Below, one piece after another: positions 10,189 through 47,743 of a stretch of 47,743 nt of DNA. The notes beneath the pieces were generated by a model. The model saw nothing but the letters and a program-made list of their open reading frames with translations, was not told where the DNA came from and searched no databases. The position numbers and the translations under genes are program-made. The DNA is from Acholeplasma sp. (GTDB taxonomy: Bacteria; Bacillota_I; Bacilli_A; Acholeplasmatales; UBA5453). Positions within the stretch are counted from its first letter, which is position 1. Each line of letters starts with the position of its first letter. The DNA is taken from assembly GCA_012839355.1 (NCBI GenBank), contig DUNK01000038.1:1-47743 (forward strand), in the 5' to 3' direction.

Positions 10189-11430
10189 TTATTCTGTAAT
10201 AACAAAGTTTCCTTTTTTAAACACTTGTACTTCTTTACCGTCTTGTGTTATACCGACTATCTCTAAATCACTTGAACCAAACATAAAGTCAACATGAGTT
10301 AAAGAGTTGTTATAACCTTTCTTTTCTAAATCTTCAATAGGTGCTCCAATACCACCTTTAATATTCATTGGATACGCTCTACCCAACGCTATATGACAAC
10401 TTGCGTTTTCATCAAATAATGTATTATAAAATAAAACATTACTATTGCTAATTGGTGAATCGTGAGATATTAGCGCAATCTCGCCAATATAACTTGCATT
10501 TTCGTCAAAGTTAATAATTGATGCTAATGCTTCTTTTTCTTTTGCTGCATCAAACTCAACAACTTTACCTTTTTCAAATCTTAACCAAAAGTCTTCAATT
10601 AATTTACCATTATAATGTAAAGGTTTTGTTGCAACAACTTTACCTTCTGTCATAAACTTATGAGGCATTGTAAATGCTTCTTCAGTTGGTAAGTTAGGAT
10701 TAAAATATACTCCATTTGCCGCAGTTTCGCCACCAGCAACCCAAATATGATCTTCAACTAGCCCAATAGTTAAATCAGTTCCTAAACTATTTTTAAAATG
10801 CAATGTTTTAAAGTTGTATTTATTTAATAATGTTGAGTACTTTCTTAAATTACTATTATGTTCATTCCATACTTTTTGAATATCTTTTTCAGGGTCAATT
10901 CTTGTTGCATCAAAGATTGCTTTCCATAACGCATTAATTGCATCTTTTTGACGCATTTCTGGAAATACTTTTTTTGCCCACACCTTGTTAGCTGCACCAA
11001 CAATTGTCCACTGACCTTGATTACCCATAGTATATTCTCTTAAGAAACCCATCTTTTGTTGTGCTGCTCTACTTGCTAGTTGAACCTTGTTTGAATCAAC
11101 ATCTTTGAATAATCCTGGCATTGGCGAAGTAATATTAATAAAACAAGCATTATTATCGACGTAATATTTAGCTCTATTAACTGAATATTCAGGCACTTCT
11201 TGAAGTGTTTCATCATCCATATTTAAATATGCTTGACGACTTACTTGTTCATCTGACCAATCAACAATTACTTTTTTAGCTCCTTGTTCATAAGCTTTTT
11301 CAACAATTTTTCTTGCCAAAACTCTTGACTCTGTATTACTTCTTAAAACAACTGTTTGACCTTTTTGAACATTAGCACCAACTTTTACAGCAAGTTCAGC
11401 TAATTGATCTAAAGATTTATAAAAACTCAT
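10189..11430 (-). CDS. pepS: M29-family metallo-aminopeptidase (AmpS/PepS)
   Basis: 413 aa, full length for the thermophilic metalloprotease M29 family of two-metal aminopeptidases. Characteristic segments are GGETAANGVYFNPNLPTEEA (two Glu in the metal site), FWLRFEKGKVV, the YIGEIALISHDSPI strand, and the ASCHIALGRAYP helix ending in HVDFMFGS. No signal peptide, so cytosolic. Its ATG overlaps the stop of murQ (TAATG), so the two are translationally coupled. As last gene of the murein operon it probably trims amino acids or small stem peptides that enter with the sugar; the peptide substrate is inference. Confidence 0.88.
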   Translation of the reverse strand: MSFYKSLDQLAELAVKVGANVQKGQTVVLRSNTESRVLARKIVEKAYEQGAKKVIVDWSDEQVSRQAYLNMDDETLQEVPEYSVNRAKYYVDNNACFINITSPMPGLFKDVDSNKVQLASRAAQQKMGFLREYTMGNQGQWTIVGAANKVWAKKVFPEMRQKDAINALWKAIFDATRIDPEKDIQKVWNEHNSNLRKYSTLLNKYNFKTLHFKNSLGTDLTIGLVEDHIWVAGGETAANGVYFNPNLPTEEAFTMPHKFMTEGKVVATKPLHYNGKLIEDFWLRFEKGKVVEFDAAKEKEALASIINFDENASYIGEIALISHDSPISNSNVLFYNTLFDENASCHIALGRAYPMNIKGGIGAPIEDLEKKGYNNSLTHVDFMFGSSDLEIVGITQDGKEVQVFKKGNFVITE

Positions 11431-12347
11431 TATTTCACACCCTTTAAAGCTTCTCTAACATTTCCTTTATGTTTAACATCTAGTATTTCTTCTATTTTAT
11501 TTATATCTTCTTCTTTTGACATTATCGCAAAAATCGCATATTTAACTGATTTATATTTTTCAACATATTTTTGCGCAACTTCATTACTAACTCCTGTAAC
11601 ATCTTTTACAATTCCAATCGCTCTACTTACTAATTTTTCATTTGACATTTGAACATCAATCATTAGGTTTTCATAAACCTTACCTAATTTAGTCATTGCC
11701 CCAGTTGAAATCATATTTAAAATTAACTTTTGTGCTGTTCCTGATTTCATTCTTGTTGAACCTGTTAGTGGTTCAGGACCTGTGATTGCTTCTATCTTAT
11801 ATTTAGCAACGCTTGCAATTAACGAATTTTCAGAAGTTGTTACACACGCTGTTTGAGCACCGATTTCATTTGCATATCTAACTGCCGATACTGCATATGG
11901 TGTTCTTCCACTCGCTGTAATTCCAACAACAAAATCTTTATTTGTTAAATTTTGTGCTTTTAAGTCAACAACTGCCGCTTCTTCCGAATCTTCAGAACCT
12001 TCTAACGCATCTCTTAACGCCTTATCTCCACCAGCAATTAACCCAACAACCATCTTTGGGCTAACACCAAACGTTGGTGGACATTCACTAGCATCTAAAA
12101 CACCAATTCTACCACTTGTTCCAGCACCAACATAAAACAGTCTCCCGCCGTTTCTAAAAACTTCAGTAACCGCATCAACAACTAAGGCAATTTTATCTAA
12201 TTCTTTTTCGATTGCTAATGGGACTAGTTTATCTTCGTTATTAAAAAGACGCAACATTTCAATTGTTGGTAATGTATCTATATTTTTTGTGCGTGGATTT
12301 CTTTGCTCAGTACTAATTTTCGAAATATCTACTTGTTTCTTTGCCAC
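11430..12347 (-). CDS. murQ: N-acetylmuramic acid 6-phosphate etherase MurQ
   Basis: 305 aa SIS-domain lyase that cleaves the lactyl ether of MurNAc-6-P, giving GlcNAc-6-P and D-lactate. Family hallmarks seen: the N-terminal STEQRNPRT, the sugar-binding GAGTSGRIGVLDASECPPTF, and a second SIS half with GITASGRTPYAVSA and EPLTGSTRMKSGTAQK. Length is standard. Starts with GTG (12347), GGAG about 8 bases upstream. It overlaps pepS downstream and follows murK directly. The D-lactate it makes matches the D-lactate dehydrogenase at the head of the cluster. Confidence 0.97.
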   Translation of the reverse strand: MAKKQVDISKISTEQRNPRTKNIDTLPTIEMLRLFNNEDKLVPLAIEKELDKIALVVDAVTEVFRNGGRLFYVGAGTSGRIGVLDASECPPTFGVSPKMVVGLIAGGDKALRDALEGSEDSEEAAVVDLKAQNLTNKDFVVGITASGRTPYAVSAVRYANEIGAQTACVTTSENSLIASVAKYKIEAITGPEPLTGSTRMKSGTAQKLILNMISTGAMTKLGKVYENLMIDVQMSNEKLVSRAIGIVKDVTGVSNEVAQKYVEKYKSVKYAIFAIMSKEEDINKIEEILDVKHKGNVREALKGVK

Positions 12348-13259
12348 TTATAAGTCTCCTTCAATTTTCTTTTTCGCTAAAACGTAAGCTCCATAAACTG
12401 GTTCTCTACCATATAAATCAAAGCGAACATTAGGTATTGCTTTATTAACCTCTGCTAAAATTGTTTCATTTACATATAAAGCCTTTAACGCAAATGATCC
12501 ACGTAATGCTACCACAACTGGACTTTTTTTCACATATACTTTATATGCTTTAATGATTTGTTCAGCTAAAAGTTTACCTTCAGCAATTAAAAGTTCTTTT
12601 ACTTTTGGATCACGATTAGAGACATCTTGAATTTCTAAAGATAATTGAGCAAGAGTACTTTTATCAGTATTATAAACATATTCTACTAATTGTTTAGGGT
12701 TTTTTAAACCGATTACTTTAATTAATCTCTCAGACATAACAGAAAATGATGATTTAGTTTCATATTCATCAATTAGTTGCTTTAACGCCGCTATAACAAA
12801 ATGATAAGCAGAGCCACCATCTCCTAAAATATGACCCCAACCGCCTAAACGATTAATTTCATTTTCATGTTCAATCATAATAACTGAACCTGTTCCGCCG
12901 ATTGCCATAATTAAAGATTCATCTCTTGTTTTTTCAATTGCATATAAGCCAATTGTAGCATCTACATCTAAACTAGCTTTGCAGTCAAATTGCTCTTCAA
13001 TTTCTCTTAGGAAATCTGCAGTATCGCTTAATCTTGATGCGCCTGCAACACCCATTTGAATAAAGACTTTCTTTTCTTTTCCGATACCTGAAACTAACTT
13101 CATAATTAGTTCCATAATTGTTTTCTTTGACTTTTCAACATTAACACTAAAATTAGAAAATCCAACTTGAATTCTCTTTAGTTCATTTCCTTCATAGTCA
13201 TAAACTACTCCTAATGTTTTTGTTCCGCCGCCGTCGATTCCGATAATGTAATCATACAT
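12348..13259 (-). CDS. murK: N-acetylmuramate/N-acetylglucosamine kinase (MurK-like, BadF/BadG family)
   Basis: 303 aa ASKHA-fold kinase. Phosphate 1 motif IGIDGGGTKT (residues about 6-15), an adenosine-side GGTGSVIM, and GGWGHILGDGGSAY in the middle place it in the BadF/BadG/BcrA ATPase family. Members next to murQ (Clostridium MurK) phosphorylate MurNAc and GlcNAc at O6, replacing the PTS import route. It directly precedes murQ, supporting this role over generic GlcNAc kinase. Its ATG overlaps the end of nagZ copy 1. No signal peptide, so cytosolic. Confidence 0.88.
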   Translation of the reverse strand: MYDYIIGIDGGGTKTLGVVYDYEGNELKRIQVGFSNFSVNVEKSKKTIMELIMKLVSGIGKEKKVFIQMGVAGASRLSDTADFLREIEEQFDCKASLDVDATIGLYAIEKTRDESLIMAIGGTGSVIMIEHENEINRLGGWGHILGDGGSAYHFVIAALKQLIDEYETKSSFSVMSERLIKVIGLKNPKQLVEYVYNTDKSTLAQLSLEIQDVSNRDPKVKELLIAEGKLLAEQIIKAYKVYVKKSPVVVALRGSFALKALYVNETILAEVNKAIPNVRFDLYGREPVYGAYVLAKKKIEGDL

Positions 13260-14817
13260 ATAATGGTAACACTCCTTTTGGTTTTATTTTCCCCAAAAGA
13301 TATTCTTTTAGAGTATTGATAGAATTTTGTGTGTATTCATATAGACAAACATAATTTTTAATTTCTGGCACTAAATAATGATCATAAGGATTTCTTAGTG
13401 AAATAACATGTAATTCCGCCTTTAATTTATTTAGTATTTTTACAAGTTCTACTTGTTGTAAGTATACATTTGAATTATATGTAGTTAAAATCACTTGATC
13501 ATATTTTGAAGCTAGTGCTTCTAATTCTTTAATTTCTTCTTTTGTTGGATTTAAACTCGCTAATTGATAATCCATATTTGGTAGATGCTTTCTTAAAATA
13601 CCAATCGTACTATGTTCACCATCAGTATGGTCTGCGCCACTAGTTGAAATTGGAAGTTGGCCGATAAATAATGTTTTGCCTTTTTCTTTGTATACTTCCC
13701 CTTTAACAAGTGTTAACGCATCATTAACTGCTTGTTGAGCAAAATCTAAATGCTTTTTGTTTCCAACTATATCTTTAACATCTCCAAATTTATTTGTAAG
13801 AATACTTAAATTTAAATCTTTTTTAAACTTTAAAACTCTCTCTACTCTCTCATCTAATACTTCCATAGAAATAGTCCCATCTAATACAGCCTTTTTAAGT
13901 TCTTTTACTGCACCGATTTGTTGTTCTTCATGGTGACAATATAATAGTAAGTTTGCTCCTGCTAAGACTGCTGGTACAGATGATTCAATAGCTCCATATT
14001 TATTTAAGATAGCTTTCATTTCCATTCCATCTGTAAAAATTAACCCTTCAAAACCCATCTTTTCTCTTAGCAAGTCTGTCAAGGCTTCTTTAGAAAGTGT
14101 TGCTGGCATTCCGTTTGTTAAGTGTTTATAAACGATGTGAGCGCTCATAATTGCTTTTAAATCATCATTAATTGCCTTTTCAAACGGCGCAAGTTCAACT
14201 TCCTTTAATCTATCCATTTCAAAATTAACACGCGGCAAATCTAAGTGTGAGTCCACATTAGTATCACCATGCCCCGGAAAGTGTTTGCCTGTTGCAATAA
14301 CTTTTGTTTGCATACCCTTAATAAAGTTATTAGCATATAAACTAACTCTCTCTGCTGTATCACCAAAACTTCTTACACCGATTACAGGATTAAGTGGGTT
14401 ATTATTAACATCTAATACAGGCGCGAAATTAACATTAATTCCTAAAGCATCTAATTCTTTTGCCATATATAAACCAGATAAATAGGCATTTTCTGGGTTA
14501 TTTGTAGCACTTAATGTCATCGCTCCAGGAAAGACGGTTGCACCATTATAAAGTCTTGTAACCATTCCACCTTCTTGATCCGCCGTAATGAACGCTGGTA
14601 TACCAATATATTTCATCATTGCTTTTTGAATATTTTGGTTTAAATTAAATAATTTTTCAGGTGATGTAATATTTCTTGTGAAAAGTAAAATATTTCCTAA
14701 CTTATATTCTTTAATTAGACCATCTATTCTTTCGCTATATTCGTCTTCTGGAAAACCAAAAACGATCAACTGACCGATTTTTTCATCTAAAGTTAAATCT
14801 TTTACCGTTTTCTTCAT
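13252..14817 (-). CDS. nagZ: Beta-N-acetylglucosaminidase NagZ, copy 1 (GH3)
   Basis: 521 aa GH3 enzyme that removes non-reducing GlcNAc from murein fragments. KHFPGHGDTNVDSHLDLP carries the Asp-x-His acid/base dyad typical of NagZ; FTDGMEMKAI carries the nucleophile Asp. A C-terminal GH3 alpha/beta domain follows (residues about 340-521), as in Bacillus NagZ. There is no signal peptide, unlike the secreted Bacillus enzyme, so hydrolysis is predicted in the cytosol. Start set at ATG 14817: GGGAG abuts the upstream ATG (14823) but is 6 bases from this one. The stop is TGA, showing that TGA terminates here. It is tandem with a diverged paralogue. Confidence 0.93.
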   Translation of the reverse strand: MKKTVKDLTLDEKIGQLIVFGFPEDEYSERIDGLIKEYKLGNILLFTRNITSPEKLFNLNQNIQKAMMKYIGIPAFITADQEGGMVTRLYNGATVFPGAMTLSATNNPENAYLSGLYMAKELDALGINVNFAPVLDVNNNPLNPVIGVRSFGDTAERVSLYANNFIKGMQTKVIATGKHFPGHGDTNVDSHLDLPRVNFEMDRLKEVELAPFEKAINDDLKAIMSAHIVYKHLTNGMPATLSKEALTDLLREKMGFEGLIFTDGMEMKAILNKYGAIESSVPAVLAGANLLLYCHHEEQQIGAVKELKKAVLDGTISMEVLDERVERVLKFKKDLNLSILTNKFGDVKDIVGNKKHLDFAQQAVNDALTLVKGEVYKEKGKTLFIGQLPISTSGADHTDGEHSTIGILRKHLPNMDYQLASLNPTKEEIKELEALASKYDQVILTTYNSNVYLQQVELVKILNKLKAELHVISLRNPYDHYLVPEIKNYVCLYEYTQNSINTLKEYLLGKIKPKGVLPLYV

Positions 14818-14835
14818 TAACATCTCCCTCTACAA

Positions 14836-18160: not shown

Positions 18161-19174
18161 CTAACCGACAATTCCTGTTCTTTCAATCGACTCAACGAAT
18201 CCTCTTTGAACGAATAAATAACCAATTAATAATGGTAACATCATTAATAACGCACAAACATTCGTAATCATCTGCAAGAATAGTGGGTTATTCCAAACCT
18301 CATCACCGATTAAGTGAAGTAATCCAGCATAACTAAGTGCCGCATACATTCCTTCTGAAGCATTAATTAACCTCATCGTTAATAATGGGAGTTCCGCAGT
18401 TGATATTTGTAGTAAACCGACATAGTATGAGTCGTTCCAAGCCCAAACGAAACTAAAGAGCGCAACCGTAACTAATGCTCCTCTTGCGTTAGGCAGCATA
18501 ACAGACCAAAATGTTCTAAAGACTCCAGCTCCGTCAATTTGTGCAGATTCTTCTAACTCAGTTGGTAGCCCTCTAAAGAACTGTCTAAAAATGAAGATGA
18601 AGATTCCGCTTCTAATACCCATACCTAAAGCATTCATCATATAAAGTGATATTTCTTTTTGAATTAAACCTAAGTTTCTAAAATATAAATATCTTGTTAA
18701 GGATAAGGCTTGCGGTGGAATAATAATTGTCAAAATTACTCCAATAAATAAGATGTTAGAACCTTTAAATCTTAATCTCGCAAACGCATAGCCTGCTAGT
18801 GATGTTGCGACTAATTGTAAAACCATTGAAACTAAACTAACCTTAATTGTGTTTGCTAAAGCTTTCCAATAATTTAAAACAATAAGCGCTATTTTAATGT
18901 TTTCAATACTCCAAACATCTGGAATCCAAACAACTGAAGGTTTATTGATATCTTCTGGTGCTCTTAAAGCTTGTAAGATTTGTTGGATAGTTGGGAAGAT
19001 AATTACGAAACATAATCCCAGTAATAATAAGTATCTAAAAAAACTGCTAAAAAATCTTCCATACTTTCTACGTCTTCTAAACTTAGCAGCAGGACTCTTA
19101 AACTCTTCGATTCTTCCTTGAATAAATTCTTTAACTTGACTTGCTTTTAGTGCTAAACTATTTTTCTCTTTCAT
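18161..19174 (-). CDS. CUT1 ABC sugar permease, MalG-like (pair 1)
   Basis: 337 aa. A basic cytosolic N-terminus (about residues 1-45), then six membrane helices with the ABC permease EAA loop (ELEESAQIDGAGVFRTFW, then the PNARGAL element) that docks the ATPase. MalG-type (second permease) features. Overlaps the upstream MalF-like gene by 17 bp. With that gene it forms a heterodimeric importer for an oligosaccharide, by context a murein disaccharide. No ATPase subunit is encoded in the window. Confidence 0.9.
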   Translation of the reverse strand: MKEKNSLALKASQVKEFIQGRIEEFKSPAAKFRRRRKYGRFFSSFFRYLLLLGLCFVIIFPTIQQILQALRAPEDINKPSVVWIPDVWSIENIKIALIVLNYWKALANTIKVSLVSMVLQLVATSLAGYAFARLRFKGSNILFIGVILTIIIPPQALSLTRYLYFRNLGLIQKEISLYMMNALGMGIRSGIFIFIFRQFFRGLPTELEESAQIDGAGVFRTFWSVMLPNARGALVTVALFSFVWAWNDSYYVGLLQISTAELPLLTMRLINASEGMYAALSYAGLLHLIGDEVWNNPLFLQMITNVCALLMMLPLLIGYLFVQRGFVESIERTGIVG

Positions 19175-23669: not shown

Positions 23670-24317
23670 CTAATATCTAAGCCGTAGTTCTTGATAAACA
23701 GACTTAACGAACGATAAGAATTGTTGAATTAAGTCAAAGAACAACAAACCTAAAAACGCCATGAAAGCCATAGCGACCACTGTTAATATAAACGTAAAGA
23801 TAGTCTTTAATAATCCGTACTCGTGAATATTTAGTATTCCCATAAATAACATTACACCAGTCAAGAAATAAGCCGCACTCATTGCAAGACTGTATAATCC
23901 TATTTCATCTAGTGTTAAATAATTAGAAATAAATACTGCTGGGAACCCAATAATAACAACAGGGAATAATGAATATCCTGTAACAATAAAGATTTCTCTA
24001 TATGTTCCTTTACCTTCAAGTAATGTTGTAATACTCCAATTACCAACAGTAAATAAAAATATTAGTAAGGCCACTGAAAAGAACTCATCAAAAGTATTGA
24101 GTGCAAGTGGATTACGCGGATTTATTACAAACCCTTCACCTAAATATTTATATATGCGCAGTAAAATAAATAAAAGCATAAATATTACTGCAACAGAAAC
24201 TTTCCCCTTCTTCTCTCTCTTTAACTCATCATAGCCGTCAAACGGATGAAAAAGAACGTATTTAGGAAATCTAATAAAGTTATACCAAAACTTTTGTATA
24301 GCTAATTTAATCTTCAT
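23670..24317 (-). CDS. Yip1-family membrane protein
   Basis: 215 aa from the chosen ATG, with about five or six membrane helices. The cytosolic N-terminus FPKYVLFHPFDGYDELKREKKG is characteristic of bacterial YIP1 proteins accompanying sugar ABC systems. Start at 24317 has AGGGGAG 10 bases upstream; an upstream in-frame Met (24365) would give a 59-base overlap with the NHL gene and lacks a site. Function unknown; genes on both sides are transport accessories. Confidence 0.7.
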   Translation of the reverse strand: MKIKLAIQKFWYNFIRFPKYVLFHPFDGYDELKREKKGKVSVAVIFMLLFILLRIYKYLGEGFVINPRNPLALNTFDEFFSVALLIFLFTVGNWSITTLLEGKGTYREIFIVTGYSLFPVVIIGFPAVFISNYLTLDEIGLYSLAMSAAYFLTGVMLFMGILNIHEYGLLKTIFTFILTVVAMAFMAFLGLLFFDLIQQFLSFVKSVYQELRLRY

Positions 24318-33235: not shown

Positions 33236-33414
33236 TTTCTGATTCACTCTCCTTTTTATTTTTGTGTTTTTCTCTTATTTTAACTACATAGTTATTATAC
33301 TACATAGATTACCGAAATGCTGACAATATAATCAAGTTGTTTTTTGTTCCACTTTCTCGCACTCTTATTATTTATATAATAATATTGCTTATGAAAACAC
33401 TTCCGTACTAATTA

Positions 33415-36978: not shown

Positions 36979-36999
36979 GCTTATCACCCTTTTATAACA

Positions 37000-38589: not shown

Positions 38590-39904
38590 GTTCTGGCACC
38601 TCCACTACTGTACTTGATATATCTTTAATTGTTATCGTAATACTAAACACGTAATCTTCATAAACAAATATAAACTCCATTTTATCAATATAACCCTCTT
38701 TAACTGATAATTGGAAATTTAGTACTACGCCATCCTCAGTAAATAAACTAATAAAATCATCTAGTAGATTCGCATACTTTGGATCTGCTGCATTTAATGA
38801 GTATTTTTTACTAGCATCATTGTATGAAAACGCATCAAACGTGAAGTTTTCATATAAGACATAACCATCACTTCCGCTTGTAGTTGTTGTTTCTCTTACA
38901 AAACCATCAGTTGTTTTTCTATAAACATACTGATTGCCATCAACAACCTCATAATACTCTTCTATAGTACCTGATTGTATTTTTGTCACATTGTCGTTGA
39001 ACATTAACAATATCGTGTAGTAATAGTTAATATTTTCAAAGTTCTCATTAACATAAAACTCAAGCGTATAATTAGTTAAGTTTAATGTATTGTTGACCGC
39101 CTCAGTGAAATTTATTTCTTCAGGGGCTCTGTTATCAACTATTGTAACTGTTACTATTTCATAAGCGTTCGGGTTTAATTTAGACGCTACTTTTACATTA
39201 ACTATCCCTTCAACCAACGCTTCCATATTACCTTCGGCATCAACCGTTAACTTTTCGCTATCTAATGATGTAAAAGTAACTCCTGTTGAATCATCAGTTG
39301 CAACCGTTAGTTTTTGTGTTGAGAAAAGATCCATTGTTAAAGTTTTAACAACATTAATATCATAAAGAATCTCATTTATACCTAAAACCCTAACACTAAC
39401 TGTTTTAACGAGTTTATAATTTGTCTTTGATTTAATTACAACATTAGCTGTTCCTGCCTCAAGCGCAGTAATTACGCCAGCATCATTAATTTTTAAAATA
39501 GACTCATCAGAAGACTCAAAAGTCACTCCGTTTTCATCATTAGTTTGGTAAACTAAATTATGCTCGCTATTAACATTAATTTCTAGTTGTTCAGCAGCAT
39601 TAATTGTAATTTTTTCGCCAGTAACTACTACATATAATGACCACTCTTTCTTCTTGTGTTTAACTGTAATAGTGCTTAAACCTGGCCCAACTCCTACATA
39701 AACTCCATTTTCATCAACTAAAACTACATCTTCGTTTAAACTTTCAAAAATAAGTTTTTCAGGTCCAACTCCTTTGAAAAGAACTTCTTGTTCTTCGCCA
39801 ACAGTGATATTGAATGTACCTTCTTCAACACTTACTTTGTTAGTACAAGCCGCTAAAACAAAGATTGCTAAAAATAAGACTAAAAAACTAAACACTCTTT
39901 TTAT
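38582..39904 (-). CDS. Ig-like (Big_2) surface lipoprotein of unknown function, probable ATA start
   Basis: About 440 aa. Lipobox VLAAC is followed by three Big_2-like repeats (residues about 27-95, 98-175, 180-255) and a C-terminal beta-rich domain (about 270-430: NLTNYTLEFYVNENFENI, KMEFIFVYEDYVFSITITI) that resembles LolA/LprG-like folds; unconfirmed. GGAGG (39914-39918) lies 9 bases before ATA (39902-39904), giving MKRVFSFLVLFLAIFVLAAC, a textbook signal; the GTG at 39895 would be 18 bases from the site and lose the Lys-Arg. It sits between the serine hydrolase and NAGPA genes. Confidence 0.75.
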   Translation of the reverse strand: MKRVFSFLVLFLAIFVLAACTNKVSVEEGTFNITVGEEQEVLFKGVGPEKLIFESLNEDVVLVDENGVYVGVGPGLSTITVKHKKKEWSLYVVVTGEKITINAAEQLEINVNSEHNLVYQTNDENGVTFESSDESILKINDAGVITALEAGTANVVIKSKTNYKLVKTVSVRVLGINEILYDINVVKTLTMDLFSTQKLTVATDDSTGVTFTSLDSEKLTVDAEGNMEALVEGIVNVKVASKLNPNAYEIVTVTIVDNRAPEEINFTEAVNNTLNLTNYTLEFYVNENFENINYYYTILLMFNDNVTKIQSGTIEEYYEVVDGNQYVYRKTTDGFVRETTTTSGSDGYVLYENFTFDAFSYNDASKKYSLNAADPKYANLLDDFISLFTEDGVVLNFQLSVKEGYIDKMEFIFVYEDYVFSITITIKDISSTVVEVPEHA

Positions 39905-39920: not shown

Positions 39921-40916
39921 TTAAGTCAAATACTCTCTTATTCTATTTCGATAAGGAAAAACATTATTGTTTGCCCTTTTTGGATGAACACCATTTGTTA
40001 ATAAAACAAAACCTTTATTTATGTTTAAATCAATCCACATGTTACAGCCCGTAAAACCCGTATGCATAATAACTTTATCAATATCGTCTACTGGTTTATC
40101 CCAACCTAAACTGCGGTTAGTTAATCCGTATCTGCCTTCTTTTAGGATTCTTGATTTAAACATTTCTTTAACTGTTTCATCTTTTAAAACAAACTCCTGT
40201 TTTAAGATGCTTTGAATAAATTTCGCTATATCTTTAGCGGTTGAAAAAAGCCCTGCGTGTCCCGCTAAACCGCCCATCGCAAAAGATTTTTCATCGTGCA
40301 CTCTGCCGACTAAATAGCCATTATAAACATCATCTTCACGCTTTTCAGTCGGAGCTGCTCTTAAAACATCTGGCCTGTAACTAGAATCTTTCATGTTTAA
40401 CTTGCTAAAGATTACTTTTTCTGCAGCTTCGTTAATTGGCATTCCATAAAGTTTCTCGACTATTAGTCCTAGCAATATATAACCAATATCAGAATAAACT
40501 ACCTTTTCTCCCTTTTCATAAATCAAATCAAACTCATAAACTTTATTGATTACTTCTTCTCTGTTTTTAAGAGTAGCCGCTTTGGGAATATCAGCAGGTA
40601 ATCCTGAACTATGTATTAATAAATCGTATATTACTACATCGCGATGCTTAAACCTCGGTAGAATATCACTAATTTTGGCATCTAAAGAAAGCTTTCCTTG
40701 TTCAATTAAATTCATTATCAATGTTGTTGTAGAAATGACCTTAGTTAAAGAGGCTACGTCATATATTTCTTCCCCATTATTTTTTACCAATGGCTCATAT
40801 GATTTGTAACCTACATAACCACACTTTATTTCATCCTTAGTAACAACACAATATTGTCCGCCAGGAAAAGCTTTTTCTTTAACGCCTTCTAAAAGAATCT
40901 CTTTTATTTTATCCAT
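39921..40916 (-). CDS. Beta-lactamase-family serine hydrolase (AmiE/YbbE-like)
   Basis: 331 aa of the class C beta-lactamase/D-peptidase/esterase superfamily. SxxK motif SLTK near residue 56 (VASLTKVIS), Tyr motif YSDIGY, and HTG (HTGFTG) in place of KTG. No signal peptide, so cytosolic. In Bacillus subtilis the murQ operon encodes a member of the same superfamily, YbbE, annotated AmiE, that frees peptide from MurNAc. The shared context suggests the same role on imported muropeptides, though substrate cannot be read from sequence. The ATG overlaps the upstream stop (TAATG). Confidence 0.82.
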   Translation of the reverse strand: MDKIKEILLEGVKEKAFPGGQYCVVTKDEIKCGYVGYKSYEPLVKNNGEEIYDVASLTKVISTTTLIMNLIEQGKLSLDAKISDILPRFKHRDVVIYDLLIHSSGLPADIPKAATLKNREEVINKVYEFDLIYEKGEKVVYSDIGYILLGLIVEKLYGMPINEAAEKVIFSKLNMKDSSYRPDVLRAAPTEKREDDVYNGYLVGRVHDEKSFAMGGLAGHAGLFSTAKDIAKFIQSILKQEFVLKDETVKEMFKSRILKEGRYGLTNRSLGWDKPVDDIDKVIMHTGFTGCNMWIDLNINKGFVLLTNGVHPKRANNNVFPYRNRIREYLT

Positions 40917-43720
40917 TATTTTCTTTTCTTAACCAATACTAAAATTGTTAAACCACCAACCAAACTTACTCCTAAGATGATGCTACCAACGATAATCGCA
41001 ATTTGTCTATAGTTAGATTCTTTTTCGCCTACAACGATATGATTATCTAAACCTTCGTCAACAGCATTAAGATTTGTCAGCATCGCAACAATTTCTTCTC
41101 TAGAACTATTTTCATTATCTAATAATGCTTGTGCCTCGTTGATAAGTTCATTAAGTTCTGCCTTTTTCTCAGGCGTAACATATTGGTAACCTTTTCTTAA
41201 CTCTTCAGGATTTGTGTTTTCACTTGCTTTAACCTTGTCTACGCGTTTTTTAAATTCTGCTAATGCCACTTCTAAATTATCTGTTACAACGCTAATATCT
41301 TCTTCTTCAAATACTGCATTTAATGTTATTGAAGCCGTTACAACAGTGTTAAAATCGTATAAATTATCACCTAAATACCAACCAGTAAATGTATAACCTT
41401 CTTTAGTTGGGTTTGCTGGTTTTGCAACAGGCCCTGCTTCTTCTAATGTTACAGTTTCTGTTCTATCTTCACCATACACAAATGTTACTACAATTTGTGG
41501 GTCTTGTTGACCTTGGAAATAACTATTAAGTAAAGTGGTTTCTACATCTTTTAATTCGTAATAAACTGCATTAATATCAGGAGAAACCGATGTTTCATCA
41601 GCAATAATTGTTTCAGCAGCTGCAATAATATTATCAACTGCCGTTAAAACTGTTTTAGGAGCGAAGTATTGTCCTTTTGGTAATTCACTCGCTTGTTTAC
41701 CTTCAGAATCTTGAATTAGGTTTCTTCTAGTTCTTAACTGATTAACCGCTCCTTGTAATATCGATACAGCTTGATCTCTATTTGGGTCAAATGAACCTTG
41801 ATAAACAGCATCTTTAAATGCATTAAATGCGTTTTGTAAAATAACTTTTTCTTCAACAAATACAGACATCCTAAATCTATTATCAACTACCCCTTCAGCT
41901 TCTTCGATTGCCGCGTTAATCGCTGCTAAAGCAGCTGCAGATGCATATTTTTTACCAAGTATTAAATCATCTGGTTCTAATCCTTCATCAGATTGAACTT
42001 CGTTACTTGTGATATAGTTATTCACTTGAGTAATCAAGTCTCTGATTTCTTGTTTCACCGCAAGTATCTCATCGTTATCTAAAGGAAGAACCTCTACATC
42101 ACTAGCCCATGTAAAATCAACAGGCTTCGTCCAATAATAGTTTTCAAGTCTTTCAATAGTGCTAACAATTTGTGGTATTGCACGATTGAATGTTCTAAAA
42201 CTAAATGTTACATGCCCCGCTACTTCTGCATATTGACTAATATATCTTAACTGTTCAACAAAAATATCTTCATTTGTCCATGGCGTGTTATCTGTATATC
42301 TATAAAATCCCAATCCTACAAGTAAGTCAACGTTTACATCACTAACAACATCTACCCACCAGTCAACCAATACCTCAAACGCTGATGATGTAGCACCAAA
42401 ATCCCAATATAATTGTGGAAGAATATAATCTAACCACTCCTCTTTTACCCATTTTCTTGTATCTGCGAATAAAGAAACATATGATTGCCAACCTGTACTA
42501 TTTGATCCATCCGGGTGTGTAGATTTATTCGCCCATATTCCGCCAGGACTAACTCCAAATTTAACTTTTTTACCATTAGTTATATTAAAATCTTCAACGA
42601 TATCATGAACGTTTTTAATCATCATATCAACATTATTTCTACGCCAATCTGCTAATGTGCTAATGTTTGTTGGGTTGTAGTTAATAAATGTTTGCGCGTC
42701 TTCTGTTGTTGTTACATAGAAATAGTCATCAAAGTGAATTCCATCAACATCTGGATAATTTGTAAGTACTTCTTCAATAACATCGCTTAAATATTGTCTA
42801 ACCTCAGGTCTACCTGGGTCTAAAATAAATGTTGCTGTACCACCAGATGGTGCGTTAGTTTGCTTTAAAACTAAATGCGGATTTTTCTTAGCGAAGTTAT
42901 CTGCATGTAATGTCGCTAACATCTCCGCATGAGTTGTTTCAGCAGGCATATTAGCAATTCTATATGGGTTTAACCATGCATGTAACTCTAAACCGCGCTT
43001 GTGAGCTTCATCAATTGTAAATCTTAAAATATCCCAATCTAAACCTTCACCTTGTGCTCCTTTAATAAACCTTGAATAAGGCGCTAATTCAGATGGATAC
43101 ATTGCATCATTCATTGATCTTATTTGGAAAAAGATTGTGTTCATGTTTAGACTTTGAACTCTATTTAAAATAGAAATAATCTCATTTTTATATTGTTGAT
43201 CATCAACCCATTGATTTAAGTCAATATTAGCAACCGTTGACACCCAAACACCACGTATTTCTTTAGTTCTTTCTGTGTAGATAGGTAATTCAATCGGTAA
43301 ACCAGTATCCTTATGTTTAAGAATTTCATTATTTCTTATTACGTGCGGATATGTTTCAACAACATCAATATCTACCCTAATATTTATAGCTTGTTCTGCA
43401 CCATAAACACCGGCTTTCAAACTTCTATATCTTAATCTATAGTTACCTTTTCTTTGAATTAAGATTGGTTCATTATAAGTAGTCCAACTGCTCGGTGGAA
43501 TACCTTGAAATAATTGATATACAATACTAACTCCAGAAACTGAACCTGTGAACCCTAATTCAATTTCAATCGTTGATGTATATACATCATTTACTGCGTC
43601 ATACTCGCCTGTAATAGTATGAACTGGCGTTGGTGGTTCTCCTTGCGCACTAAGATTACCAACCGCTATTAAAACAAAACTTAATAATATAGTTAATACT
43701 AACAATCTAAATTTCTTCAT
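40916..43720 (-). CDS. Surface-anchored GHL10 (DigH/YngK-like) glycoside hydrolase
   Basis: 934 aa. Signal peptide (LLVLTILLSFVLIAVGNLSAQ), an Ig-like N-terminal region (about 30-140), then a GHL10/DUF187 catalytic barrel (about 150-530): REVRGVW-type start EIRGVWVSTV, FFQIRSMNDAMYPS, LELHAWLNPYR, VDGIHFDDYFY, PQLYWDF. FIVAR-like helical modules (about 590-740), an InlB/Flg_new repeat (KEGYTFTGWYLGDNLYDF) and another helix module follow, then a C-terminal membrane helix with basic tail (VKKRK). E. coli DigH, same family, cuts peptide-free ('denuded') murein glycans, matching the amidase nearby. Confidence 0.88.
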   Translation of the reverse strand: MKKFRLLVLTILLSFVLIAVGNLSAQGEPPTPVHTITGEYDAVNDVYTSTIEIELGFTGSVSGVSIVYQLFQGIPPSSWTTYNEPILIQRKGNYRLRYRSLKAGVYGAEQAINIRVDIDVVETYPHVIRNNEILKHKDTGLPIELPIYTERTKEIRGVWVSTVANIDLNQWVDDQQYKNEIISILNRVQSLNMNTIFFQIRSMNDAMYPSELAPYSRFIKGAQGEGLDWDILRFTIDEAHKRGLELHAWLNPYRIANMPAETTHAEMLATLHADNFAKKNPHLVLKQTNAPSGGTATFILDPGRPEVRQYLSDVIEEVLTNYPDVDGIHFDDYFYVTTTEDAQTFINYNPTNISTLADWRRNNVDMMIKNVHDIVEDFNITNGKKVKFGVSPGGIWANKSTHPDGSNSTGWQSYVSLFADTRKWVKEEWLDYILPQLYWDFGATSSAFEVLVDWWVDVVSDVNVDLLVGLGFYRYTDNTPWTNEDIFVEQLRYISQYAEVAGHVTFSFRTFNRAIPQIVSTIERLENYYWTKPVDFTWASDVEVLPLDNDEILAVKQEIRDLITQVNNYITSNEVQSDEGLEPDDLILGKKYASAAALAAINAAIEEAEGVVDNRFRMSVFVEEKVILQNAFNAFKDAVYQGSFDPNRDQAVSILQGAVNQLRTRRNLIQDSEGKQASELPKGQYFAPKTVLTAVDNIIAAAETIIADETSVSPDINAVYYELKDVETTLLNSYFQGQQDPQIVVTFVYGEDRTETVTLEEAGPVAKPANPTKEGYTFTGWYLGDNLYDFNTVVTASITLNAVFEEEDISVVTDNLEVALAEFKKRVDKVKASENTNPEELRKGYQYVTPEKKAELNELINEAQALLDNENSSREEIVAMLTNLNAVDEGLDNHIVVGEKESNYRQIAIIVGSIILGVSLVGGLTILVLVKKRK

Positions 43721-43725: not shown

Positions 43726-44934
43726 TTACCTTCCTTTGTTAAATAACTTTTTAAGTTCAAGCATTCCTTCTTTTTCAGGCCCATCTTGAACGAATGTTTT
43801 GTATGTAAAGAAAATGTTTCCTTGTACTTCTTTAAATTGGTTTGCATATTTTACTTGATTAACAATCTCCATCTTATCTTCATACTGCCCATCTCTTCCT
43901 AAACGGTAAGCACCATGACCTATATAAAGTTTTACATTAGTTCCTTTACATAAATCAACCCACCAATTAGTCATATCGGCAAACGGAGCCTTCTCAAAAG
44001 CAAAATCCCAATAAAGTTGTGGAACTATATAATCAATAAATCCTTCTTTAACCCATCTATATGAGTTAGCGTGTTGGCTAATCCCTGATTCATAGACTCC
44101 ACCAACGTTTCTTGAACCGTTAGGATCAGATAAGTTAGTCTTCCAAACTCCAAACGGACTTACACCAAATTGAAGTTTTGGATTATACGCTTTTACCGCA
44201 TCATAAACGCCTTTAATTACCTCATCAACTTGACGTTCTCTAAAATCATCTAACGATTGATTTTTATCTTTTCTTTTTTCATACTCCTCGATATCATCAT
44301 GCTCATGATGTAAAGGCTTATAAGGATAAAAATAATCATCAAAATGTATCCCATCAACATCATAATTCTTAATAATCTCCATCATAGAATCAATAATATG
44401 TTGTTTAACTTCGGCCTTTGCAGGATTTAAAATTATCAATCCTTCAGTATCTAAAACAAGTAAATCTTTTCTTCTTTTAGCCAAATTTAAATCACTTGCT
44501 GATTCTAACCATTCGTCTTTATCATGGTTTGCCATAGAAACACGATACGGATTACACCACGCGTGTAATTCTATATTGTTTTTATGTGCTTCCTTCACTA
44601 TCCAATCAAGCGGATCAAATAGCAATGGATCTCCCTCTTTACCAACTAAATAACGACTAGTAGGATTTAATTTTGATTTATAATAAGCGTCATTATTAGT
44701 TCTAACTTGAAAAAATATCGTATTAATATTGTAATTTTTAGCCGTTTCAATTATTTCTTTTAATTTTTCTTTGTATTTTTTAAGATCTAATTGGTTAGGC
44801 ATATCAATATTTACAACATTTGAAACCCAAAAAGCTCTGACTGGCTTTTCATGATATTTTTTTGGAATAACAACTTGATTTCCATCCCAATCTAAAATCG
44901 GCTTATTAGGTTCTTTAAATGTGTATAATTTCAT
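43726..44934 (-). CDS. GHL10 hydrolase without signal peptide
   Basis: 402 aa, essentially only the GHL10 barrel: ARAFWVSNVVNIDMP-like start (residue about 30), FFQVRTNNDAYYKSKLNP, IELHAWCNPYR, VDGIHFDDYFYPY and PQLYWDF. Closely related to the neighbouring anchored enzyme but with no signal, stalk or anchor, so predicted cytosolic. It may trim longer imported glycan chains, or be exported by an unknown route. AAAGGGGG precedes ATG at 7 bases. A 5-base gap separates it from the anchored copy. Confidence 0.87.
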   Translation of the reverse strand: MKLYTFKEPNKPILDWDGNQVVIPKKYHEKPVRAFWVSNVVNIDMPNQLDLKKYKEKLKEIIETAKNYNINTIFFQVRTNNDAYYKSKLNPTSRYLVGKEGDPLLFDPLDWIVKEAHKNNIELHAWCNPYRVSMANHDKDEWLESASDLNLAKRRKDLLVLDTEGLIILNPAKAEVKQHIIDSMMEIIKNYDVDGIHFDDYFYPYKPLHHEHDDIEEYEKRKDKNQSLDDFRERQVDEVIKGVYDAVKAYNPKLQFGVSPFGVWKTNLSDPNGSRNVGGVYESGISQHANSYRWVKEGFIDYIVPQLYWDFAFEKAPFADMTNWWVDLCKGTNVKLYIGHGAYRLGRDGQYEDKMEIVNQVKYANQFKEVQGNIFFTYKTFVQDGPEKEGMLELKKLFNKGR

Positions 44935-44997
44935 TTTTTATCCCCCTTTAAATGTGTATCTCAATTTTGTTTATTGCTTGTTTTGGCTGTTTTCTAT

Positions 44998-46143
44998 CTA
45001 TTTAGTTATAACATTAGATATTTGTCCTAATATTACATCCTTTTTTGCGCCTGTAGCACTTTTTACGTTGCTTGACTTACCGCTCAACGTCTCATTTCCT
45101 AATATTACAAACGCAAGAGCTTCTTTTGCATCAACATTTAAGCCATAAAAAGAAGTTGTTGTTACTTTAACTTCTTTTAAATACTCGCTTAGTAATTTTA
45201 GTAAATAAGCATTGTGCGCTCCTCCACCCGATGCAATTAATTCAAAACCTTCTAATTTATCACATATTAATTTACAACCCATACTAATTGTTTTGGCTGT
45301 AAAATGTGTTGCTGTCGCTATTAAATCTTCTTTTTTTTCGTTTTTATACTTGTTTAAAATCTCTTCTGAGAAACTACTCCCAAAATCTTCTCTACCAGTA
45401 GACTTTGGATAAGGCAATTTAAAATATTCATTGTTTACCAGTTCTTCAAAAAGCGGCTTAATTAGTTCCCCTTTTTTAGCAATATCTCCATTATTATCAT
45501 ATGGTAAATCATAAAGTTTCTCCATAAAATAATTAATGATCATATTGCCAGGCCCTGTATCAAAGGCGATTACATCATCTAAACTTCCGCCTTTTTTCAA
45601 ATATGTAACATTGGCTATTCCACCAATATTTAACATTATTCTTTCAACCTTATCACTACTATATAAACAATAATCAGCATAAGGTACTAAAGGTGCTCCT
45701 TGGCCTCCTACTGCCATATCTGCCGTTCTAAAATTGCTAATAGTTGTAATATTTAAATTATTTGCAAGGACTGAGCCATCGCCTAACTGTAGCGTAGAAG
45801 GCCTTAAATCACCTATTTCTTTTGGTAAATGATAAATCGTCTGTCCGTGTGAAGCGACAAATGATATATCTTCGCTCGTTAAACCGTTCGCCTCCAACAA
45901 ACTTTTTGTTTGTCTAGCAAACATTTCCGAAATTTCAAAATTTAAACTTGTAATTTCTTTTACATTGCTAGTATTTAAATTTAGTTGAGATATAATTCTT
46001 CTTTTTATCTCTTTTTCAATTGGATAAGTTTTAAAATCAACTATTTTTACTTTAGTGTCTTTAAAATTTTCCTTAATTTGTACGAGTACTACATCAACAC
46101 CATCTAGTGATGTGCCGCTCATAATCCCTATCGCTAATTTCAT
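44998..46143 (-). CDS. anmK: 1,6-anhydro-N-acetylmuramic acid kinase
   Basis: 381 aa ASKHA kinase that opens and phosphorylates anhydroMurNAc to MurNAc-6-P. N-terminal IGIMSGTSLDGVDVVLV is the AnmK signature; ASHGQTIYHLP, LNIGGIANVTYL, FDTGPGNMIIN and ASGGGAHNAYL follow in the family order. ATG at 46143 is chosen because GAGG is 6 bases upstream; a TTG at 46155 overlaps that site. Substrate anhydroMurNAc comes from lytic transglycosylases, showing the organism can use fragments shed by other bacteria. Own promoter and a cre-like site precede it. Confidence 0.96.
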   Translation of the reverse strand: MKLAIGIMSGTSLDGVDVVLVQIKENFKDTKVKIVDFKTYPIEKEIKRRIISQLNLNTSNVKEITSLNFEISEMFARQTKSLLEANGLTSEDISFVASHGQTIYHLPKEIGDLRPSTLQLGDGSVLANNLNITTISNFRTADMAVGGQGAPLVPYADYCLYSSDKVERIMLNIGGIANVTYLKKGGSLDDVIAFDTGPGNMIINYFMEKLYDLPYDNNGDIAKKGELIKPLFEELVNNEYFKLPYPKSTGREDFGSSFSEEILNKYKNEKKEDLIATATHFTAKTISMGCKLICDKLEGFELIASGGGAHNAYLLKLLSEYLKEVKVTTTSFYGLNVDAKEALAFVILGNETLSGKSSNVKSATGAKKDVILGQISNVITK

Positions 46144-46166
46144 ATTAAACCTCAACTTTTCTTAAA

Positions 46167-46180: not shown

Positions 46181-46186
46181 ATCTTT

Positions 46187-46216: not shown

Positions 46217-46228
46217 TATTACTTATGA

Positions 46229-47626
46229 CTATATATCTACGATTTTGCTAGGATTCAAGATGTTTTTAGGGTCAAACAATCTCTTAATTCCTTTCATTAA
46301 TTCAAGTTGTGTAGATCCAATTTGAGTCGCTAAATATTCTTTTTTCAAATAACCTACAGCATGTTCTCCTGATGTTAATCCACCAAGACTAAATGCTTTA
46401 CTGTACATTAAATCAAAGGCTTCATCTAATTTTTCTTCAAAGACTTTTAAGTCCATATCATCTTTACAAAAGTAAATATGTAAATTCCCATCGCCAACAT
46501 GACCAAAATATGGCATTCTTATGCCTAACTTTTTACTTACTTCTTCAGTGTACTCTAAATATTCAGGAATCACTGCTCTTGGTACAACAACGTCTAACTC
46601 ATCCATTAAAGGCGTTGAAGCTTTAATTGCTTCTAAGAAAGCACCTCTAATTGTCCAAACGCTACTGTTTCTCTCATCAGTATCAATTAAATAAACATCA
46701 ATTGCTCCTAATTCCATACATAACTCACTTGCTCTATCAATATCTTTTCTAAGTGCGTCTTTGCTAGTACCATCATAACTTAAAAGTAAATACGCATCAT
46801 AAATATCATGTGGCATGTGTTTGCCTAAAAACTCTTTACTATATTTAAGTGATGGTTGGTTCACATATTCAACCGCTGTTGGAGTTACATGTTTCTCAAT
46901 TAATTGTGCTGCAGCTTTTACTGCAGTTGCTGTATTTTTAAATGGAACTAATAAAGATGTTGAATATTTTGGTAATGATGTTAGTTTCAGTGTTGCTTCA
47001 ACAATAATTCCTAAAGTTCCTTCCGTTCCAATAAACAATTCTTTAAGTGGATAACCTGAAGAGTTTTTAACTACTTTACCACCAACATTGATTACTTCTC
47101 CGTTCGCTAAAACAACTTCTAAACCTCTCACCCATTCTCTTGTAGTACCATATTTAATCGCTCTCATACCACCAGCATTTGTTGAGATTGTTCCGCCAAT
47201 CGTCGCAGTTTTTTCACCTGGATCTGGCCCATAAAATAGATCATGTTTTAAAACTTCTTCATATATATCAAGCATTAATACGCCTGGTTGAACTTTCAAA
47301 GTCATATTTGTGTGGTCAAGTTCAAGAATTTTATCCATTCCTGATAAATCTAATAAAATTCCACCTAAAACTGGAACTGCACCACCAACTAAACCTGTAC
47401 CAGCACCTCTTACTGTAACAGGAATATTTTCTTTATGAGCATATTTCATCACTTTAGAAACTTGCTCTTTATTTTTAGCAACAACTCTCACTTCGGGATA
47501 AGCAACTATTAATCCTATCTCATCTTTAGCGTATTCTTCAGCAATCTCATCGCCAACATAAGTATTGTTGTCGCCAAATATTTCTTTTAACGCTTTTACG
47601 TCTTTATCGGTAATTTTCTTATACAT
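46229..47626 (-). CDS. lctD: FAD-linked D-lactate dehydrogenase (GlcD/LctD family)
   Basis: 465 aa. FAD_binding_4 (PCMH) domain with TVRGAGTGLVGG (residues about 71-82) and ATIGGTISTNAGGMRAIKYG, then FAD-oxidase C domain with MPYFGHVGDGNLHIYF and LTSGEHAVGYLKKEYL. The family oxidises D-2-hydroxy acids such as D-lactate or glycolate. The gene 2 bases upstream is etfA, the arrangement of the Acetobacterium LctBCD lactate dehydrogenase-Etf complex, which couples D-lactate oxidation to NAD+ with ferredoxin. GGAGG at 9 bases supports the ATG. MurQ in the same cluster makes D-lactate, so D-lactate is the most likely substrate. Confidence 0.88.
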   Translation of the reverse strand: MYKKITDKDVKALKEIFGDNNTYVGDEIAEEYAKDEIGLIVAYPEVRVVAKNKEQVSKVMKYAHKENIPVTVRGAGTGLVGGAVPVLGGILLDLSGMDKILELDHTNMTLKVQPGVLMLDIYEEVLKHDLFYGPDPGEKTATIGGTISTNAGGMRAIKYGTTREWVRGLEVVLANGEVINVGGKVVKNSSGYPLKELFIGTEGTLGIIVEATLKLTSLPKYSTSLLVPFKNTATAVKAAAQLIEKHVTPTAVEYVNQPSLKYSKEFLGKHMPHDIYDAYLLLSYDGTSKDALRKDIDRASELCMELGAIDVYLIDTDERNSSVWTIRGAFLEAIKASTPLMDELDVVVPRAVIPEYLEYTEEVSKKLGIRMPYFGHVGDGNLHIYFCKDDMDLKVFEEKLDEAFDLMYSKAFSLGGLTSGEHAVGYLKKEYLATQIGSTQLELMKGIKRLFDPKNILNPSKIVDI

Positions 47627-47627
47627 C

Positions 47628-47743
47628 TTAAGCTACCTCCTCTAATAATTTATTAAGTTCAGGCAATATTTCGTATAAATCACCAACAATTGAATAATGA
47701 CTAACATTAAATAGTTTGCAGTCTGGGTCATTACTAATACTAA
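47628..47743 (-). CDS. etfA: Electron transfer flavoprotein alpha subunit, C-terminal fragment
   Basis: Minus-strand frame entering from the right edge, 38 codons ending TAA at 47628-47630. The peptide contains SNDPDCKLFNVSHYSIVGDL and ends YEILPELNKLLEEVA. This is the conserved EtfA C-terminus (N-x-D-P-x-A-x-I-F ... Y-G-I-V-G-D-L-x-E-x-L-P-x-L), part of the FAD domain. The stop is 1 base before the dehydrogenase ATG, whose Shine-Dalgarno lies inside it, so the two are coupled. Whether it carries the N-terminal ferredoxin domain of confurcating types is outside the window. Confidence 0.85.
   Translation of the reverse strand, partial: SISNDPDCKLFNVSHYSIVGDLYEILPELNKLLEEVA

What the first reader, a model, noticed from the sequence alone, without database searches (positions are those of the whole stretch)
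10189..47743. Apparently complete peptidoglycan-scavenging and MurNAc-fermentation superoperon with ABC import
One co-directional cluster holds amidase, two GHL10 murein hydrolases, NAGPA, two solute-binding proteins, four permeases, NamZ, two NagZ, MurK, AnmK, MurQ, an M29 peptidase and a D-lactate dehydrogenase. Single families are known, and Bacillus has a smaller murQRP-amiE-nagZ-namZ operon, but this combination is unusual: extracellular stripping, ABC uptake instead of PTS, cytosolic NamZ and NagZ, and both the anhydro and reducing-end branches. It reads as a system for eating other bacteria's cell walls. If the host is wall-less (inference), it would be scavenging rather than recycling.
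Basis: partly seen in the sequence, partly recalled or inferred. Interest (0 to 1): 0.85.

Follow-up and report, generated by a model that had tools for sequence, protein, structure and literature searches.

The report
Wall-less bacterium's cell-wall-eating gene cluster
A bacterium whose relatives have no cell wall carries a long, conserved gene cluster that looks built to break down, import and ferment other bacteria's cell walls, and the cultured model organism Acholeplasma laidlawii appears to carry nearly the same cluster, so the idea can be tested now.

Summary
The cluster is real. The host is an Acholeplasmatales MAG (964 kb, 86% complete) with no Mur ligase and no penicillin-binding transpeptidase. 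Of 38 NamZ-bearing genomes among 150 sampled from the order, 37 lack Mur ligases, so foreign murein is the likely substrate. The ~35-kb gene order is conserved across wall-less Acholeplasmatales, including genomes whose lengths equal those of A. laidlawii PG-8A and A. brassicae. I found no report of this in the held library.

Corrections: the set is not quite complete. An in-frame TAA splits the surface amidase lipoprotein (intact in relatives). The ATPase, NagA and NagB lie on other contigs. A RpiR/MurR-like regulator and EtfAB flank the dehydrogenase in relatives but were not found here. The dehydrogenase is LctD of the electron-confurcating LDH-EtfAB complex. Walled relatives hold the core, so it was probably inherited from recycling ancestors and repurposed.

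Inferred mechanism: amidase plus Cwp19-like lytic transglycosylase outside; ABC import; NamZ, NagZ, AnmK/MurK, MurQ inside; products to glycolysis and pyruvate. Biochemistry is untested.

The parts
46229..47626 (-). FAD-dependent D-lactate dehydrogenase, LctD-type (confurcating LDH-EtfAB family); removes the D-lactate released by MurQ
   Evidence: PDB 7qh2_C LctD E=5.7e-167, 559 bits, next best 226; EtfA (LctC, 3e-127) and EtfB adjacent in G025
44998..46155 (-). AnmK, 1,6-anhydro-MurNAc kinase
   Evidence: NF007142 468.9 bits, cut-off 435; FDTGP and SGTSLDG motifs
43726..44934 (-). GHL10 protein b, no export signal: predicted cytosolic Cwp19/DigH-type murein glycan cleaver
   Evidence: Cwp19 5oq2 E=3.7e-81 with putative active-site residues aligned; no TM/signal
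40916..43720 (-). GHL10 protein a, signal peptide and C-terminal TM anchor: surface lytic transglycosylase candidate
   Evidence: PF02638 200 bits; Cwp19 1e-79; TM peaks at residues 6 and 909
39921..40916 (-). cytosolic serine beta-lactamase-fold hydrolase (S12; YfeW/AmiE-like?), possible MurNAc-peptide or D-amino-acid hydrolase
   Evidence: PF00144; best NCBIfam PBP4B/YfeW, 130.7 bits, below cut-off 385; SLTK, YSD, HTG motifs
38582..39895 (-). Big_2 surface lipoprotein, unknown role
   Evidence: PF02368; lipobox LAAC
37000..38589 (-). exported NAGPA phosphodiester glycosidase
   Evidence: PF09992 107 bits; signal peptide
34660..36987 (-). N-terminal part (Big_2 repeats) of the surface amidase lipoprotein; ends at in-frame TAA 34660-34662
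   Evidence: lipobox LVGC; fused to Amidase_2 in relatives; stop read
33481..34461 (-). C-terminal Amidase_2 part of the same lipoprotein (N-acetylmuramoyl-L-alanine amidase)
   Evidence: PF01510 62.9 bits; in frame with the upstream ORF
33415..33443 (-). best promoter-like site of the region (TTGACA-17-TAAAAT), upstream of the first SBP gene
   Evidence: consensus match only, total matches not above shuffles
30695..33247 (-). lipoprotein solute-binding protein with Ig-like stalk
   Evidence: PF16403 x3, SBP_bac_1; lipobox LAAC
30637..30668 (.). strong hairpin (13 pairs) between the two SBP genes
27672..30578 (-). solute-binding protein with N-terminal CBM6-like modules (membrane anchor clear in relatives)
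   Evidence: SBP_bac_8/SBP_bac_1; CBM6 and sugar-SBP fold matches, low-to-moderate confidence model
26708..27661 (-). ABC permease A
   Evidence: PF00528
25812..26705 (-). ABC permease B
   Evidence: PF00528
24307..25806 (-). NHL/TPR membrane-anchored protein
   Evidence: PF01436, TPR
23670..24365 (-). Yip1-domain membrane protein
   Evidence: PF04893
21028..23655 (-). DUF5696, N-terminally anchored; GH129/GH101-like fold, catalysis untested
   Evidence: PF18952 495.8 bits; model pLDDT 86.4, best matches GH129 enzymes 5opq, 5wzq
19158..21026 (-). ABC permease C with a ~300-aa N-terminal charged extension absent in relatives
   Evidence: PF00528 slightly below cut-off; 309 aa in same-genus L002
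18161..19174 (-). ABC permease D
   Evidence: PF00528
17520..18158 (-). DUF624 membrane protein
   Evidence: PF04854
16394..17527 (-). NamZ exo-N-acetylmuramidase, no export signal
   Evidence: PF07075 280.5, PF20732 148 bits
14836..16401 (-). NagZ-like GH3, second copy
   Evidence: PF00933 304 bits; KHFPGKGDAAVDAH and FTDG; PRK05337 198.7, just below cut-off 207
13252..14823 (-). NagZ, GH3 beta-N-acetylglucosaminidase
   Evidence: PRK05337 216.7, cut-off 207; KHFPGHGDTNVDSH and FTDG
12348..13259 (-). MurK-like MurNAc/GlcNAc kinase
   Evidence: PF01869; PDB 8zo3 E=6e-22
11430..12347 (-). MurQ, MurNAc-6-P etherase
   Evidence: TIGR00274 377.7, cut-off 302; DASECPPT, EGSED
10189..11430 (-). M29 aminopeptidase; in this cluster only in G000 and G025 of the genomes compared
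   Evidence: PF02073 522 bits

Best explanation
A complete-in-outline murein catabolic system of a wall-less bacterium that feeds on other bacteria's (probably dead) walls. Outside: the lipoprotein amidase strips peptides and the anchored Cwp19-like GHL10 cuts the denuded glycan, leaving anhydro and reducing MurNAc ends. Two surface binding proteins (CBM6-like and Ig-stalk fusions) pass the sugars to CUT1-type ABC permeases powered by a shared MalK-type ATPase encoded elsewhere. Inside: GHL10b, NamZ and NagZ cut the oligosaccharides to GlcNAc, MurNAc and anhydro-MurNAc; MurK and AnmK phosphorylate; MurQ splits MurNAc-6-P into GlcNAc-6-P and D-lactate; NagA/NagB feed glycolysis; an LctD-type dehydrogenase oxidises D-lactate to pyruvate. 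The core was inherited from walled ancestors that recycled their own wall and was repurposed after wall loss. Shown: gene content, localisation signals, synteny, absence of Mur ligase and transpeptidase genes, the operon tree. Inferred: substrate, transporter specificity, order of steps, activity of every enzyme, and direction of the evolutionary change.
For: Murein-specific families: MurQ, AnmK, NamZ. No Mur ligase or transpeptidase in G000 or its sampled family, while both searches ring in 22-23 other genomes of the order, so they have power. NamZ and Mur ligase coexist in only 1 of 150 genomes (G004). NagA, NagB and one MalK-type ATPase are present elsewhere in G000. Export signals on the outer enzymes, none on the inner ones, in this genome and three relatives. 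~35-kb synteny in 15 wall-less relatives. Cwp19 yields both anhydro and reducing ends (PMC6016235) and both GHL10 proteins match it best. LctD 5.7e-167, EtfAB next door in relatives. Tree separates wall-less from walled operons with 100% support. Independent ecology: Acholeplasma was the main assimilator of 13C-labelled dead E. coli within 2 h (PMC4628116).
Against: No expression or biochemical data. In this MAG the amidase lipoprotein is interrupted by a stop codon, so the outer step may be broken here, or the stop is a sequencing error. The authors of the 13C study attributed the label to nucleic acid precursors, not murein. A digester enrichment on purified peptidoglycan did not list Tenericutes among enriched phyla (PMC7511781). 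SBP specificity is unknown; DUF5696 and NAGPA have no obvious role on plain murein. The MAG is 14% incomplete.
Confidence: 0.78

Rival explanations
1. Recycling of the cell's own wall: the host makes some peptidoglycan and this is an ordinary recycling operon.
For: Walled relatives (f9, f12, G004) carry the same core; recycling is the known role in Bacillus; the MAG is incomplete.
Against: No Mur ligase or transpeptidase in G000 or in any of the 12 other family members searched, 5 of them rated 99% complete or better with at most 1% contamination. Other wall genes (MraY, MurG, FtsW) were not searched.
Confidence: 0.06
2. The cluster serves another aminosugar glycan (chitin, host glycoprotein or wall glycopolymer), with the MurNAc enzymes as a side activity.
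For: DUF5696 folds like alpha-HexNAc/anhydro-galactose hydrolases of GH129; NAGPA cleaves alpha-GlcNAc phosphodiesters in animals (own knowledge); the SBP matches generic sugar binders.
Against: MurQ, AnmK and NamZ act on MurNAc compounds as far as known, and they are among the most widely kept genes of the cluster.
Confidence: 0.08
3. Predation: the surface hydrolases lyse living bacteria rather than harvesting debris; a wall-less cell cannot be harmed by its own murein hydrolases.
For: Surface-anchored amidase and transglycosylase; Anaeroplasma bactoclasticum, a wall-less relative, is reported to lyse bacteria (from memory, no paper read here).
Against: No toxin, secretion or contact machinery recognised in the cluster; prey with an outer membrane would be shielded.
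Confidence: 0.15

Closest known systems
Bacillus subtilis murQ-murR-murP-amiE-nagZ-namZ operon
   Same: NamZ, NagZ, MurQ, a serine beta-lactamase-fold hydrolase (AmiE-like, from memory), and in relatives a RpiR/MurR-like regulator.
   Different: ABC instead of PTS MurP; kinases AnmK and MurK present; NamZ and NagZ without export signal (secreted in Bacillus, from memory); adds surface amidase, GHL10s, CBM-fused SBP, LctD; host makes no wall.
Cwp19 of Clostridioides difficile / DigH of E. coli (murein glycan cleavage)
   Same: Cwp19 is the best solved match of both GHL10 proteins; active-site residues align.
   Different: One copy is anchored by a C-terminal TM without CWB2 repeats, the other has no export signal; both sit in a catabolic cluster.
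Agrobacterium YejBEF-YepA muropeptide ABC importer (PMC9790009, abstract)
   Same: ABC transporter used for murein fragments instead of AmpG.
   Different: Serves recycling and is a different transporter; here CUT1 sugar-type permeases with sugar SBPs.
Acetobacterium woodii LctBCD (LDH-EtfAB)
   Same: LctD 5.7e-167 here; EtfA/LctC 3e-127 and EtfB adjacent in same-genus G025.
   Different: Linked to MurQ-derived D-lactate rather than to growth on lactate (inference); EtfAB not found in this MAG.
Tannerella forsythia MurNAc scavenging (MurT, MurK, AmpG; PMC5790795, PMC7670621 abstracts)
   Same: MurK-type kinase and dependence on external MurNAc.
   Different: Tannerella needs MurNAc for its own wall; here it can only be food.

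Membership tests
MurQ-dependent MurNAc dissimilation | MurNAc-6-P etherase equivalog with catalytic Glu motifs | tested here: met
   TIGR00274 377.7 bits over cut-off 302; DASECPPT, EGSED
MurQ-dependent MurNAc dissimilation | downstream NagA and NagB in the genome | tested here: met
   nagA on C15 336.7 bits, nagB on C29 253 bits, intact
Bacillus murQRP-amiE-nagZ-namZ operon | PTS transporter MurP in the operon | tested here: not met
   only ABC permeases in the cluster
Bacillus murQRP-amiE-nagZ-namZ operon | exported NamZ and NagZ | tested here: not met
   no signal peptide or TM in own genome or 3 relatives scanned
Bacillus murQRP-amiE-nagZ-namZ operon | AmiE amidase | tested here: inconclusive
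   S12/beta-lactamase fold with SxxK; no AmiE reference sequence available
AnmK | equivalog score over cut-off | tested here: met
   NF007142 468.9 over 435; NF007148 453.7 over 387
MurK | MurNAc/GlcNAc kinase rather than another sugar kinase | tested here: inconclusive
   best solved match 8zo3 MurK 6e-22, but a hexokinase is close behind at 5e-21; NagK model far below cut-off
GHL10 lytic transglycosylase (Cwp19 type) | fold family and conserved active-site residues | tested here: met
   E=1e-79 and 3.7e-81; NPYR, FDDYF, VPQLYW aligned
GHL10 lytic transglycosylase (Cwp19 type) | anhydro-MurNAc product | not testable with these tools
   needs an enzyme assay
CUT1 sugar ABC importer | SBP plus two permeases, ATPase shared (MsmX/MalK type) | tested here: met
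   two SBPs, two permease pairs; one OB_MalK ATPase on C13
LDH-EtfAB (LctBCD) | LctD | tested here: met
   7qh2_C 5.7e-167
LDH-EtfAB (LctBCD) | EtfA/EtfB in the same genome | tested here: inconclusive
   adjacent in G025; EtfA not within 1.6 kb of contig ends of G000, rest of genome not searched for it
GH129 | GH129 fold and catalytic acids | tested here: inconclusive
   DUF5696 fold match 3.9e-27 at 12% identity; significant profile match only to the N-terminal part; catalytic residues not tested

The most novel reading that the evidence does not exclude
Free-living wall-less Acholeplasmatales, including A. laidlawii, are specialised murein eaters: an ancestral recycling operon of walled Bacilli became, after wall loss, a surface-anchored machine for digesting other bacteria's walls, used by cells that are themselves immune to murein hydrolases, and possibly for attacking living neighbours.
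Probability: 0.45. Interest if true: 0.82.

Novelty: new variant of a known kind. Interest (0 to 1): 0.66.

Why it matters
Mollicutes are known for having no wall; the held A. oculi comparative-genome paper does not contain the words peptidoglycan, muramic, murein or cell wall. A conserved ~35-kb murein catabolic cluster in wall-less lineages would help explain how acholeplasmas win dead bacterial biomass, puts GHL10, NamZ, CBM-fused SBPs and a confurcating lactate dehydrogenase into one pathway, and shows what can become of a recycling operon when the wall is lost. It is testable in a cultured model organism.

Tried and rejected
Looked for EtfA and the regulator at contig ends of G000: none. 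'NagB broken by TAA' rejected: the stop is the natural end of the gene. 'NamZ marks wall-less cells' rejected as a general rule: 15 of 24 NamZ-bearing genomes of the class from outside the order have Mur ligases. Promoter consensus counts were not above shuffles. The second structure model (CBM-fused SBP) is weak over the SBP half. Literature: no held paper joins Acholeplasma with N-acetylmuramic acid 6-phosphate, nor Mollicutes with peptidoglycan and necromass; the library is open-access only. NAGPA as remover of teichoic acid linkage units (GlcNAc-1-P-6-MurNAc) was considered; no paper found in support.
Full report
WHAT IS THERE. The window is contig 37 of a 964-kb, 41-contig MAG, 86% complete. 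A digester MAG contig holds the same NamZ at 100% identity (L001), and a same-genus contig, 72% identical in NamZ, is titled Acholeplasmataceae bacterium (L002; G025 contig C12 has the same length, 47,508 bp). From 47626 down to 10189 lie 25 ORFs on the minus strand, most overlapping or at most 25 bp apart.

CORRECTIONS TO THE READING. The amidase ORF is not a separate gene: it continues in frame the Big_2 lipoprotein ORF 34660-36987 after a single TAA at 34660-34662; relatives have one lipoprotein of 856-1393 aa with Big_2 repeats and a C-terminal Amidase_2. Either the gene is broken here or the MAG has an error; without the upstream part the amidase has no export signal. The 'D-lactate dehydrogenase' is LctD: 559 bits to A. 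woodii LctD against 226 for the next solved protein; in the same-genus genome the next two genes are EtfA (LctC, 3e-127), with a cysteine-rich N-terminus, and EtfB. A RpiR/MurR-like regulator lies between AnmK and LctD in relatives and is absent from that place here. The M29 gene belongs to the cluster only in G000 and G025, and only these two have both NagZ copies, of the genomes compared.

HOST AND WALL. Mur ligase (PF01225) and transpeptidase (PF00905) are absent from G000 and from all 12 other family members sampled. In 150 genomes of the order, Mur ligase is found in 23 (22 in family f3, one in f5), transpeptidase in 22 of the same genomes, NamZ in 38 (10 f1, 27 f4, 1 f5); only G004 (f5) has both NamZ and a Mur ligase. 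AnmK and over-cut-off MurQ follow NamZ closely (36 and 37 genomes). I did not search MraY, MurG, FtsW or MurJ. A 2024 survey reports repeated loss of peptidoglycan in these orders (PMC10868615).

CONSERVATION. The order regulator-AnmK-GHL10b-GHL10a-S12 hydrolase-amidase lipoprotein-SBP-SBP/CBM-permeases-NHL-Yip1-DUF5696-permeases-DUF624-NamZ-NagZ-MurK-MurQ recurs with minor changes in wall-less f1 and f4 genomes. Two of them have contigs of exactly 1,496,992 and 1,877,792 bp, the published chromosome lengths of A. laidlawii PG-8A and A. brassicae O502; this identifies them by length only. Walled genomes of f9, f5 and especially f12 carry the core; f12 includes both SBPs and DUF5696, and G198 also GHL10, two ORFs of EtfB/EtfA size and LctD. 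In a concatenated tree of NamZ, MurQ, AnmK, two permeases, MurK and NagZ one branch with 100% support separates the walled operons from all wall-less ones; inside the wall-less clade several nodes are weak, and G217 (f16, no Mur ligase) falls among f4. This fits inheritance of a recycling/uptake operon followed by repurposing; a species tree was not built.

MECHANISM. Export signals sort the products: surface GHL10a, NAGPA, amidase lipoprotein, SBPs, DUF5696; cytosolic GHL10b, NamZ, NagZ, AnmK, MurK, MurQ, S12 hydrolase, M29. Cwp19, the best match of both GHL10s, makes 1,6-anhydro-MurNAc ends and also reducing MurNAc ends (PMC6016235), and E. coli DigH cuts glycan denuded by amidases (PMC12288456; that DigH is GHL10 is from memory). 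This would explain why amidase and GHL10 travel together and why both AnmK and MurK are kept. The cluster has no ATPase; one MalK-type ATPase lies on C13. NagA and NagB are on C15 and C29. M29 and the S12 hydrolase suggest that some peptide-bearing fragments enter the cell (inference).

UNEXPLAINED PARTS. DUF5696 is anchored outside, in the core of the cluster in walled and wall-less genomes alike, and its confident model (pLDDT 86.4) folds like GH129 exo-glycosidases. Paralogues are numerous in these genomes, so it may be a general partner of such transporters. With NAGPA it might remove alpha-linked decorations or secondary polymers from the wall; this is speculation.

ECOLOGY AND LITERATURE. 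RNA stable-isotope probing found Acholeplasma to be the main rapid assimilator of dead E. coli in manure slurry, though the authors suspected nucleic acid precursors (PMC4628116). A digester enrichment on purified peptidoglycan did not name Tenericutes (PMC7511781). My searches found no held paper describing murein catabolism in acholeplasmas; subscription papers were not searchable.

VERDICT. Real, conserved, and most likely a system for living on foreign murein. All enzymes are of known families; the new point is the assembly of a full import-and-ferment route in wall-less bacteria and its ancestry. New variant of a known kind.

Noticed in passing
window 19158-21026: ABC permease C carries a ~300-residue charged N-terminal extension not seen in relatives; another assembly (L001) shows the same 622-aa ORF, so it is unlikely to be an assembly error.
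   Followed up: partly
window 30637-30668: 13-pair hairpin between the two SBP genes; may set the SBP-to-permease expression ratio.
   Followed up: no
L017:3482-6019 (G025) and equivalents: A 793-944 aa surface protein with C-terminal anchor and no Pfam match sits between amidase lipoprotein and SBP in relatives but is absent in the window.
   Followed up: no
L028:17235-18527 (G012) and G015: A GH4-family enzyme lies between GHL10b and AnmK in several relatives; candidate extra glycosidase of the pathway.
   Followed up: no
order survey: DUF5696 occurs in up to 7 copies per genome in wall-less Acholeplasmatales; family of unknown function with a GH129-like fold.
   Followed up: partly
family f19: Family f19 mixes NamZ-bearing genomes with and without Mur ligases, and the stretches read lack the long cluster: a second group in which wall loss and MurNAc use could be compared.
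   Followed up: no
window 5308-7276: Two adjacent membrane proteins, the larger with bacterial PH domains (bPH_2), outside the cluster.
   Followed up: no
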